Under the pieces are notes generated by a model, which ran no database searches, had not been told where the DNA came from, and worked only from the letters and a program-made list of their open reading frames with translations. DNA of 60,952 nt from assembly GCA_018816705.1 (NCBI GenBank), contig JAHIVG010000103.1, positions 1-60,952 of the forward strand. The letters are read 5' to 3'. Below are positions 5,723-59,430 of this stretch, piece after piece. A program made the translations under genes and the position numbers. Numbering within the stretch: position 1 is the first letter of the stretch; each line of letters begins with the position of its first letter. Origin of the DNA: Nanobdellota archaeon (lineage in GTDB: Archaea > Nanobdellota > Nanobdellia > Woesearchaeales > JAHIVG01).

Positions 5723-6211
5723 ATGCGCTCATTTGTCGCCCTTGACATCCCAGAAGGATTGATCACGAAATTAAAGTATATTCAGGATGCGCTGAGGGGG
5801 CATGGTCAATTCTCTTTTCCAAAGAGCTTCCACCTCACGCTGAGCTACCTGGGTGAAATTGAGGACGCTGAAAGGATAATCGAAGGCCTGTCCCAGATAC
5901 GCTTCGACCCGTTCAAATTCAAGCTGGACAAGGTAGGCATGTTCGGCAAGCGAGTTATATGGATCGGCATCAAGCCAGAGCAGGATGTTGTTGAACTGGC
6001 CAAGCAGGTGAGAAAGGCAGCGCCTCCAAAAGACAGCAAGTTCCACCCCCACATCACCCTCGCCAGGATAAAATGGCTGAAGGACCAGGACTGGAAGGTA
6101 ACCATCCCGGAAGACGAAGTGCTGGTAGAAGCCTTCAAGCTGTACAAGAGCACCCTCACTCCGGAAGGGGCGGTATACGAAGTGTTAGGGAGTTTTACCC
6201 ATGGAAAATAA
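5723..6211 (+). CDS. thpR: RNA 2',3'-cyclic phosphodiesterase (LigT/ThpR family)
   Basis: Two HxTL/HxTx motifs: FHLTLSYLG and FHPHITLARIK. Confidence 0.9.
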   Translation: MRSFVALDIPEGLITKLKYIQDALRGHGQFSFPKSFHLTLSYLGEIEDAERIIEGLSQIRFDPFKFKLDKVGMFGKRVIWIGIKPEQDVVELAKQVRKAAPPKDSKFHPHITLARIKWLKDQDWKVTIPEDEVLVEAFKLYKSTLTPEGAVYEVLGSFTHGK

Positions 6212-6980
6212 GGTCATCAAGACAATGCTGAAACCTCTGTGGAGGACTTGGTATTCCTACATAAGCTCGCTGGACAAGAATTCTGAAATCAACTTCCTGA
6301 ATTTCGGCTATGCCAACGACGATAGACCAGAGCTGGATGAAGAGGATGAGATCAACCGGTATCCCATCCAGCTCTATGATCACGTCGGCAAGGGCATCAA
6401 GCTAGAGGGCCAAGATGTATTGGAAGTCGGTTGCGGGAGAGGAGGAGGTGCCTCATACATAGCCAGATACATGAAACCCAAGTCAATTGTCGGAATTGAC
6501 CGGTGTAAGAGGGCGATCGATTTCTGTAATAAAGGATATGACACCGCCGGGTTGTCTTTCTCACAGGGAGATGCGATGAAATTAGGGTTTGATGATATGA
6601 GCTTTGATGCAGTACTCAATATTGAATCATCCCATTCTTATGAGGGGATGGACAGGTTCTTGAGCGAAGTCCACAGGATCCTCAAGCCAGGAGGGCATCT
6701 CCTGTTGGCTGATTTCCGTGATAGGACCGACGTGCCCAGGCTGGAAAAGGTGTTGAGGGACTCACAGTTCAAGCTTGTGAAAAAGGAGCAGATAACACCT
6801 CAAGTGGTGAAAGCACTGGAGCTTGACAGCGGAAGACGCCTGGATCTCATCAGGAGATTGGTACCGACAATACTATATGGGCCATTACGGGTCTTTGCCG
6901 GGACAGAAGGATCAACCACCTACAACTCCTTCAAGACAGGGAAGAAGGAATACTGGAACTTCATCCTGAGAAAGGTCTGA
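6201..6980 (+). CDS. Class I SAM-dependent methyltransferase
   Basis: VLEVGCGRGGGASYIARYM, HRILKPGGHLLLADF. Confidence 0.88.
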   Translation: MENKVIKTMLKPLWRTWYSYISSLDKNSEINFLNFGYANDDRPELDEEDEINRYPIQLYDHVGKGIKLEGQDVLEVGCGRGGGASYIARYMKPKSIVGIDRCKRAIDFCNKGYDTAGLSFSQGDAMKLGFDDMSFDAVLNIESSHSYEGMDRFLSEVHRILKPGGHLLLADFRDRTDVPRLEKVLRDSQFKLVKKEQITPQVVKALELDSGRRLDLIRRLVPTILYGPLRVFAGTEGSTTYNSFKTGKKEYWNFILRKV

Positions 6981-7025
6981 TAGAAGGAAAGCTTTAAAAA
7001 CAGCTTTCTTCTCTTCTGCATCGGT

Positions 7026-7175
7026 GGGCCCGTAGCCTAGTCTGGATAAGGCGACAGCCTTCTAAGCTGAGGGTTCAAGTATCAGCTTGGATCCGCTTAA
7101 TAGATCGGGGGTTCGAATAGTTGACGCTTGCGGCAACGGCCGAGAAGCGCAGCTTCGACAGTCCCCCCGGGCTCA
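7026..7175 (+). tRNA. tRNA-Arg(UCU) with two introns (7070-7100 and about 7118-7161)
   Basis: Acceptor GGGCCCG/CGGGCTC, D-arm GCCT/AGGC, loop CTTCTAA. A mature cloverleaf forms only after removing two insertions; the first sits in a well-formed bulge-helix-bulge. Confidence 0.88.
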
Positions 7176-7307
7176 CTTCATTTTCATGAACCGTTACCTT
7201 CATGCCCTTGTGAAATTGGTGATAGTGGCAGTGCGGCACTTGGTTATTCTGCTGTTCTTCAGCAAGAAGAAACCTTTATAAATCCAGCAACACTAATCAA
7301 TAAATAT

Positions 7308-7393
7308 GCGGGGGTGGCCAAGCGGTTTAAGGCGGTCGCCTGCAGAGCGATTATTCGGGGGTTCGAAACCAAGCGAGAGTCCCTCCCCCCGCT
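7308..7393 (+). tRNA. tRNA-Cys(GCA) with a 12-nt T-loop intron (7368-7379)
   Basis: Acceptor GCGGGGG/CCCCCGC, discriminator U73, anticodon arm GTCGC-CTGCAGA-GCGAT, T-arm GGGGG-TTCGAA[intron]T-CCCTC. Confidence 0.9.
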
Positions 7394-7529: not shown

Positions 7530-8231
7530 ATGAAGAAAAAGCATCTTGAGAAATCTTCTTCCCCCAAGATACTAATCAAAGAAATTAAAAGGTGTAATCG
7601 AAATTTATTTATAATATCACTCTTTATTGCAGTAATATCTGGATTCATTACTTATATTCTGTTAATGACTATTTATGGATTAATTTTTTCTATTTGTGCG
7701 TATGGATTAGTTGGATACTTGCTTTACTTAGTTTATATTAGAAATCTTGATTATAACAAATCTCCAATTATTATTCAAATGAAAAGATTTAGTGAGAATA
7801 AAAAAAATGTCATACTTGAGCTGGTAAAAGAGTTAAATGAGCGCAAGAATAAGATTGAATTTCGAAATGTAATAATTACTTCTTCATGGTTATGCCAAAG
7901 AACATTTTTATTCTTTAAAGTATTTCATTTTAGTCAATTATATTGGGTATATATAAAGAAAACACGACATTATACAAATTTTATCCCTTCAGGAACGACT
8001 TGGGAATTAGTATTCAATTTGTTTGATGGTAAAGATATTATCGGTTACCCAACAAAATCTGGAAATAAAAAGGATTCCGAAACAATTATTGAAGAAATTC
8101 ATAAAAGAGTTCCTTGGGCTTTTTTTGGTTATAGTGATGAGATAAAAAATGAATGGCAAAATAATCCAATAGTAATAATAAATGCGGTCCATGAGAGAAT
8201 ATTAGAAATTCAAGAGCAATTAAAAAAATGA
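7530..8231 (+). CDS. Hypothetical membrane protein (AT-rich island)
   Basis: Two TM segments; overlaps the next CDS start (ATGA). Confidence 0.7.
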   Translation: MKKKHLEKSSSPKILIKEIKRCNRNLFIISLFIAVISGFITYILLMTIYGLIFSICAYGLVGYLLYLVYIRNLDYNKSPIIIQMKRFSENKKNVILELVKELNERKNKIEFRNVIITSSWLCQRTFLFFKVFHFSQLYWVYIKKTRHYTNFIPSGTTWELVFNLFDGKDIIGYPTKSGNKKDSETIIEEIHKRVPWAFFGYSDEIKNEWQNNPIVIINAVHERILEIQEQLKK

Positions 8232-9673
8232 AGAAAAAACCTATCCCTTTGATTGTATTTATACTTATTGGTGGATTTGTGGGTTTGATTATTCATATTA
8301 GCCCCCTTTTATTTGAGATGGATATATTTCGACAATTGACTCTAAAAGAAAGTGGTAGATACCAACCAGAATATATATTTGAATATGATTGTCAAGAATA
8401 TAACTTTTCATTATTGTTATATCAAAGTTATTATGAACATTTTCAATCAAGTAAGAAGCAGGTTTTTTCTTTATCAGATATGGATGAAAATGAATTCTTA
8501 GACAAATATTATGGGATTTTCTTATCTAATAAAATTGATGAAAAAATATTGGATGAAATTATTCAGATCATTCAGGAAGAAATATCTTCGGAGGATAGTG
8601 ATAATGTTGTACTAGCAATAGTTTCTTTTGTCCAGAATTTCGAGTATAATTGTGAAAAAGCAAATAGTTACGAGCTTTTTAACCTTGACCCTTACTATGA
8701 CTTGGAGTATAATACGAATTATCCTTATGAAACTCTGTATCATTCAATTGGTGTTTGCGAAGACACCTCGATTCTGTTAGCCAAGTTATTAATAAAATTG
8801 GGGTATGGTGTTGCCTTATTATATTTTGAAGATGAAAAGCATATGTCCGTTGGATTAGCTTGTGCTGATGAATACTCTAACTATGAATCTGGTTATTGTT
8901 ATATTGAAACAACTCTTCCAAGCCAGATTGGAATTGTACCATATATAGCAAATGAGATTGAGATAAAATCGACTCCAAATATAATTGAAATAGCTGAAGG
9001 AAAAACATTTAATAAAATTACACAAATAAAAAAGCAACAGGAAGAATTGAGCAATGAATATGGACCCGATATTTTGCAATTGGCCAAATGTCAAGAAATA
9101 GAACTACTCAAAGAAATTATACAGTTAGAAAAAGAGCTAGAACCATTTACAACAAAATTAATGAAATATGAAGAGCGAATAAATAAATCCGAAAATAAAG
9201 TTGATTATCAGGAATCAATACTTGATTCATACGACGATCAATATAAAGAGATTGGGATTATGGATACTGATTATCAATGGTCTCTTTATGAATATGATAG
9301 TGCATGTTTCTATATTATCACCGACGAACAATATGCACAGTGTACAAAATTGTACAACAAAGCTGAGGACAAACGACAGGCATTAAATAGCGAAATTGAT
9401 GATTTTAATAGTGGATATTACACAGCATATGAAGAGTATAATACCACGTTAAATGAATATAATAATCTTATTGATGAATATAATGAATTTACAGAGGCAT
9501 ACAATACTCAAATTGAACCATATAATGAAAAAATTGAGATATATAACAATCTATTGTTAGAGTCGTATAAAGAATGTTCTCCTGTAAAATATGAACCTGA
9601 AGAACAGACTACTGTAATAACAGTACACCCAATAGAACCCTCAATTGTGATCTCAGAGGTTAATTCTTATTAG
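8228..9673 (+). CDS. Membrane-anchored transglutaminase-like protein with long coiled-coil/repeat C-terminus
   Basis: GVCEDTSILLAKLLIKLG plus KHMSVGL (Cys/His core), then EYN-type repeats. Confidence 0.65.
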   Translation: MKKKPIPLIVFILIGGFVGLIIHISPLLFEMDIFRQLTLKESGRYQPEYIFEYDCQEYNFSLLLYQSYYEHFQSSKKQVFSLSDMDENEFLDKYYGIFLSNKIDEKILDEIIQIIQEEISSEDSDNVVLAIVSFVQNFEYNCEKANSYELFNLDPYYDLEYNTNYPYETLYHSIGVCEDTSILLAKLLIKLGYGVALLYFEDEKHMSVGLACADEYSNYESGYCYIETTLPSQIGIVPYIANEIEIKSTPNIIEIAEGKTFNKITQIKKQQEELSNEYGPDILQLAKCQEIELLKEIIQLEKELEPFTTKLMKYEERINKSENKVDYQESILDSYDDQYKEIGIMDTDYQWSLYEYDSACFYIITDEQYAQCTKLYNKAEDKRQALNSEIDDFNSGYYTAYEEYNTTLNEYNNLIDEYNEFTEAYNTQIEPYNEKIEIYNNLLLESYKECSPVKYEPEEQTTVITVHPIEPSIVISEVNSY

Positions 9674-59357: not shown

Positions 59358-59430
59358 GCCTCCGTAGCATAGTAGCTATTGCGTGGGACTTGTAATCCCA
59401 AGGTCGTGGGTGCGAATCCCACCGGAGGCT
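59358..59430 (+). tRNA. tRNA-Thr(UGU)
   Basis: GCCTCCG/CGGAGGC, anticodon arm TGGGA-CTTGTAA-TCCCA, T-arm GTGGG/CCCAC. Confidence 0.88.

What the first reader, a model, noticed from the sequence alone, without database searches (positions are those of the whole stretch)
7026..7175. tRNA-Arg(UCU) with two non-canonical introns
The gene folds to a normal tRNA only after removing 7070-7100 (31 nt) and about 7118-7161 (44 nt). Intron 1 lies at position 42/43 inside the anticodon stem. It shows a textbook bulge-helix-bulge: outer TCT/AGA, helix AAGC (7064-7067)/GCTT (7095-7098), bulges TGA and AAT, and an inner 9-bp stem GGGTTCAAG/CTTGGATCC. Cutting between the second and third bulge bases restores GCTG|T, which pairs with ACAGC. 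Intron 2 splits the T-loop at 59/60 (TTCGAA|T) with a relaxed motif. Predicted mature tRNA: GGGCCCGTAGCCTAGTCTGGATAAGGCGACAGCCTTCTAAGCTGTAGATCGGGGGTTCGAATCCCCCCGGGCTCA.
Basis: partly seen in the sequence, partly recalled or inferred. Interest (0 to 1): 0.8.

Follow-up and report, generated by a model that had tools for sequence, protein, structure and literature searches.

The report
Twice-interrupted arginine tRNA, one mobile-looking intron
This is a real arginine tRNA gene from a Woesearchaeota-type archaeon that works only after two inserts are cut out, and one of those inserts belongs to a family of near-identical introns found at the same spot in several different tRNA genes of distant relatives.

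Summary
Confirmed. Window 7026-7175 is a tRNA-Arg(UCU) gene with a 31-nt intron at 42/43 and a 44-nt T-loop intron at 59/60. Splicing gives exactly the claimed 75-nt tRNA, which ARAGORN accepts, while it rejects the unspliced gene. Intronless orthologues in the same order show both empty sites at the predicted junctions. No second Arg(UCU) was found in the 94%-complete genome. The gene is not an oddity there: 24 of 26 tRNA genes I reassembled are interrupted. T-loop introns of a shared design are enriched across the window's order (inferred Woesearchaeales; 622 pattern matches against 250 control in 353 genomes), but not in 86 genomes of the same class outside it. The T-loop's own TTCR forms half of the splice-site helix; its varying base pairs with a matching base in the intron (134 of 145). 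Intron 2 belongs to a near-identical family in T-loops of Arg(UCU), Arg(UCG), Lys(CUU), Glu(CUC) and Ala(GGC) genes from five taxonomic families, which indicates intron transposition. EndA is a single ~178-aa gene lacking the crenarchaeal loop credited with broad specificity. Splicing itself is inferred. The kind is known; the T-loop expansion and intron spread in this lineage seem undescribed.

The parts
6992..6999 (+). TATA-like box CTTTAAAA, 27-34 nt upstream of the tRNA
   Evidence: sequence; the neighbouring tRNA-Cys has TTTATAAA at the matching distance; promoter function inferred
7026..7069 (+). exon 1 of tRNA-Arg(UCU): positions 1-42, anticodon TCT
   Evidence: the 5' half is identical in other genomes of the order
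7070..7100 (+). intron 1, 31 nt, position 42/43, strict BHB: helix AAGC 7064-7067 / GCTT 7095-7098, bulges TGA 7068-7070 and AAT 7099-7101, inner stem 7071-7079 / 7086-7094
   Evidence: empty site GCTG|TAGATC in orthologues L221 and L249
7101..7117 (+). exon 2: position 43 through T-loop base 59 (TTCGAA)
7118..7161 (+). intron 2, 44 nt, T-loop position 59/60, relaxed BHB using the T stem and TTCG; member of an intron family found in Arg, Lys, Glu and Ala tRNAs of other genomes
7162..7175 (+). exon 3: position 60, T-stem 3' strand, acceptor 3' strand, discriminator A73; no encoded CCA
7275..7282 (+). TATA-like box TTTATAAA of the neighbouring tRNA-Cys
   Evidence: sequence
7308..7393 (+). tRNA-Cys(GCA) gene interrupted by a 12-nt T-loop intron (7368-7379, ACCAAGCGAGAG) at 59/60
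   Evidence: spliced form called tRNA-Cys(gca) by ARAGORN, unspliced form not found

Best explanation
7026-7175 is the single functional tRNA-Arg(UCU) gene found for this Woesearchaeota-type archaeon. The transcript carries two BHB introns. The splicing endonuclease EndA is inferred to cut a strict BHB at 42/43 and a relaxed one in the T loop at 59/60; the RtcB ligase is inferred to join the exons. The T-loop motif is built partly from the tRNA itself: the T stem is the outer helix and TTCR (54-57) is the 5' side of the central helix, so an insertion ending in YGAN-AG before T60 creates a splice site. Intron 2 is homologous to introns at the same position in other tRNA species of distant relatives, so it most likely arrived by intron transposition (copying between tRNA genes and/or lateral transfer), not by independent origin. 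Shown: gene anatomy, junctions by empty sites, uniqueness, pairing covariation, intron homology, presence of EndA and RtcB. Inferred: splicing in the cell, the enzymes acting on it, the mechanism of spread.
For: Exact spliced cloverleaf and shuffle control; 5'-half pattern unique in the genome; empty-site orthologues and orthologues with only a T-loop or only an anticodon-loop intron; T-loop intron pattern 622 against 250 control in 353 genomes of the order, and base 57 with its intron partner 104 A/T, 30 G/C, 6 G/T, 5 A/C; 49 candidates verified inside tRNA genes: 39 A/T, 9 G/C, 1 A/C; intron 2 homologues with at most 2 mismatches in 23 bases in five genomes, control 0 in 353; consistent fold of all six copies; one EndA gene and RtcB.
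Against: No RNA data for this organism. The genome is a 94%-complete draft in 114 contigs, so an unlisted second Arg(UCU), particularly one interrupted upstream of position 38, is not excluded. EndA is a single-gene, alpha-type enzyme without the crenarchaeal loop, a type described as narrow in specificity, yet intron 2 is relaxed. The covariation sequences are related, so the Fisher p-value overstates significance.
Confidence: 0.93

Rival explanations
1. A decayed tRNA pseudogene that picked up insertions; another Arg(UCU) gene does the work.
For: Two insertions; the genome is an incomplete draft.
Against: All stems and conserved positions are intact after splicing, both inserts carry BHB-type structure, no other Arg(UCU) 5' half was found, a TATA-like box is in place, and 24 of 26 reassembled tRNA genes of the genome are interrupted in similar ways.
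Confidence: 0.03
2. Intron 2 and its homologues in other tRNAs are not transposed; they are one ancient T-loop intron kept by vertical descent from ancestral tRNAs.
For: Two genomes carry it in the same tRNA, Arg(UCU).
Against: The near-identical stretch occurs in five tRNA species in five families, while most Arg(UCU) orthologues lack it; G232 has it in two different tRNAs; other T-loop introns are alike between different tRNAs of one genome (G018, z 3.0-5.8).
Confidence: 0.12
3. Intron 2 is conserved because the excised RNA has a function of its own (for example a guide RNA), not because of recent spread.
For: The 5' 23 bases, including the loop GCGGCAACG, are almost invariant while the 3' part varies.
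Against: No C/D box motifs seen by eye; the Rfam search of this stretch gave only weak tRNA and chance matches; most relatives do without it.
Confidence: 0.1

Closest known systems
Non-canonical BHB introns of archaeal tRNAs (Thermoproteales, Nanoarchaeum, Thaumarchaeota)
   Same: Several introns per gene, positions outside 37/38 including 59/60, strict and relaxed BHB (PMC4090602, PMC8450103).
   Different: Here in a Woesearchaeota-type lineage with the T loop as a major site; 42/43 is not among the positions named in the passage read (its list ends in 'etc.').
[quoted passage not shown]
   Same: Very similar introns in different tRNA species.
   Different: Here in a Nanoarchaeota-type order, at the T loop, with near-identical copies in five taxonomic families.
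EndA of Nanoarchaeum equitans, (alpha-beta)2, PDB 3iey
   Same: Best PDB match to this genome's EndA.
   Different: Only one EndA gene was detected here and in most sampled relatives; the ~178-aa protein keeps an acidic DAEGD loop as in the M. jannaschii homotetramer enzyme.

Membership tests
archaeal tRNA gene with BHB introns | canonical cloverleaf only after removal of the inserts | tested here: met
archaeal tRNA gene with BHB introns | BHB at the exon-intron junctions | tested here: met
   strict for intron 1, relaxed for intron 2
archaeal tRNA gene with BHB introns | empty sites in relatives at the same junctions | tested here: met
archaeal tRNA gene with BHB introns | splicing endonuclease and RtcB in the genome | tested here: met
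archaeal tRNA gene with BHB introns | spliced RNA observed | not testable with these tools
   no RNA data
transposed tRNA introns (Thermoproteales-like) | homologous introns in different tRNA species | tested here: met
transposed tRNA introns (Thermoproteales-like) | host tRNA bodies unrelated in phylogeny | tested here: inconclusive
   different isoacceptors in different families; no tree built
broad-specificity EndA ((alpha-beta)2 or epsilon2) | second (beta) subunit gene or three-unit fusion | tested here: not met
   one PF01974 match in the genome, encoding ~178 aa; a very divergent beta subunit or one in the missing 6% is not excluded
broad-specificity EndA ((alpha-beta)2 or epsilon2) | crenarchaea-specific loop | tested here: not met
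   insertion present in A. pernix alpha, absent in this EndA and 11 relatives; the ARMAN loop was not tested

The most novel reading that the evidence does not exclude
The window's order (inferred Woesearchaeales) harbours actively spreading T-loop introns that exploit the universal TTCR of the T loop as half of the splice site, move between tRNA species and between lineages, adjust one intron base to the host's base 57, and are removed by a single-gene EndA without the loops thought to be needed for relaxed substrates.
Probability: 0.5. Interest if true: 0.72.

Novelty: new variant of a known kind. Interest (0 to 1): 0.56.

Why it matters
It explains why standard tools miss tRNA genes in this lineage: only nine passed the Rfam cut-off in this genome. 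It gives a simple reason for the T loop as an insertion hot spot. It makes two open questions testable: how tRNA introns move, and whether a single-subunit EndA lacking the known specificity loop can remove relaxed-BHB introns.

Tried and rejected
A scan of genome contigs with the HMG-CoA-synthase-like protein found no relatives, and the neighbouring methyltransferase found no syntenic locus. Two 16-17-mers of intron 2 searched in viral contigs gave 13 and 33 matches, about what chance gives; the 17 contexts printed were not T loops, so no viral carrier is indicated. The first T-loop pattern was too loose (26 matches against 23 control) and was replaced by a stricter one. Literature searches in the open-access library found no description of tRNA introns in Woesearchaeota; subscription papers were not searchable.

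Full report
Observation. The tRNA-Arg(UCU) at 7026-7175 is real. An intron-tolerant cloverleaf search over both strands of the window returns this gene and the adjacent tRNA-Cys, and nothing comparable in 40 dinucleotide-shuffled windows. The Rfam tRNA model scores the unspliced gene below its cut-off.

Source. The window lies in G000, a draft of 1.74 Mb, 114 contigs, 94% complete. RadA of the window has its best matches (65-75% identity) almost entirely in Woesearchaeota/Nanoarchaeota assemblies. Relatives held are only at the level of order. Calling the order Woesearchaeales is inference.

Junctions. A pattern for the Arg(UCU) 5' half matches once in the genome and in 51 of 145 genomes of the order. 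Of some fifty genes read, most are intronless with ACAGC-CTTCTAA-GCTGTAGATC-type anticodon arms and TTCGAAT T loops, that is, empty sites at the predicted junctions; L249 and L221 keep GCTGTAGATC exactly. Others carry an intron in or near the anticodon loop; G232, G008, G015 and G307 carry one at 59/60. The 42/43 intron was seen only in the window. Its BHB is strict.

The genome. Nine tRNAs pass the Rfam cut-off in the whole genome, most of them 83 nt or longer. From the Rfam and pattern loci I could reassemble 26 tRNA genes, some by hand; 24 are interrupted and 17 have a T-loop intron. The pattern searches favour T-loop introns, but among the 16 genes found by the Rfam model alone 9 have one. 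Several genes also have D-loop inserts.

The T-loop design. In these introns the outer helix is the T stem, the central helix pairs T54-T55-C56-R57 with YGAA near the intron's 3' end, and cuts fall after base 59 and before T60. The pattern GTTCRAN...YGAAAGTCC occurs 622 times against 250 for the reversed pattern in 353 genomes of the order; in the 86 sampled genomes of the same class outside the order I count 23 against 43. R57 and Y were free in the pattern, yet they match in 134 of 145 distinct matches (Fisher p 5e-20; not corrected for relatedness). Of 68 candidates examined in context, 49 met strict criteria for lying in a tRNA gene, with 48 of 49 matching.

Intron 2 as a family. AATAGTTGACGCTTGCGGCAACG (two T-loop bases plus the start of intron 2) occurs with 0-2 mismatches in five genomes of five families, always in a T loop: Arg(UCU) in G000 and G232, Lys(CUU) in G232, Arg(UCG) in G074, Glu(CUC) in G163, Ala(GGC) in G171 (the last three isotypes assigned by hand). 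The reversed control gives none in 353 genomes. All six fold alike, and the copy in Ala, whose base 57 is A, has U where the Arg and Lys copies have C. In G018 four T-loop introns in different tRNAs are similar to each other (z 3.0-5.8), with C or U at the pairing base to suit G57 or A57; a TATC...GGAT family recurs in G101, G104 and G018. I read this as intron transposition, of the kind described for Thermoproteales (PMC4090602). The mechanism is unknown.

Machinery. One EndA gene is found, with PF02778 and PF01974 domains in about 178 aa; 52 of 60 sampled genomes of the order have exactly one match. It keeps the catalytic Tyr, His and Lys positions and an acidic DAEGD loop as in M. jannaschii, and lacks the A. 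pernix specificity loop. A review states that only (alpha-beta)2 and epsilon2 enzymes remove relaxed motifs efficiently (PMC6379350), so this lineage is either an exception or has an unseen partner. RtcB is present.

Verdict. The gene is a new member of a known kind; the order-wide T-loop expansion and the dispersed intron family make it a new variant worth testing.

Noticed in passing
window 7308-7393: tRNA-Cys(GCA) next to the finding has a 12-nt T-loop intron at 59/60; missed by ARAGORN and the Rfam cut-off.
   Followed up: yes
window 5723-6211: A LigT/2'-5' RNA ligase-like phosphoesterase (PF02834) and a methyltransferase (6201-6980) lie directly upstream of the tRNA genes; LigT-type enzymes act on RNA 2',3'-cyclic phosphate ends. 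Link to splicing not tested.
   Followed up: partly
L003 (G000:C6) and L005 (G000:C95): Partial repeats of the tRNA's own sequence lie just outside the tRNA-Ser(GCU) and tRNA-Thr(GGU) genes, reminiscent of integration sites.
   Followed up: no
L131, L132, L136, L140, L146 (G000): tRNA genes with large D-loop inserts; L146 spans 207 nt. L014 looks like tRNA-Lys(UUU) with a D-loop insert of about 100 nt plus a T-loop intron.
   Followed up: partly
window 59358-59430: tRNA-Thr(UGU), one of only two intronless tRNA genes found in this genome.
   Followed up: no
G068, G071 (L283-L291): Class II (Leu/Ser-type) tRNAs carry T-loop introns sharing a CTTNCGGTT stretch, possibly another intron family.
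   Followed up: no
window 8228-9673: Transglutaminase-like (PF04473) protein with a long coiled C-terminal region, next to a DUF6709 protein (7530-8231).
   Followed up: no
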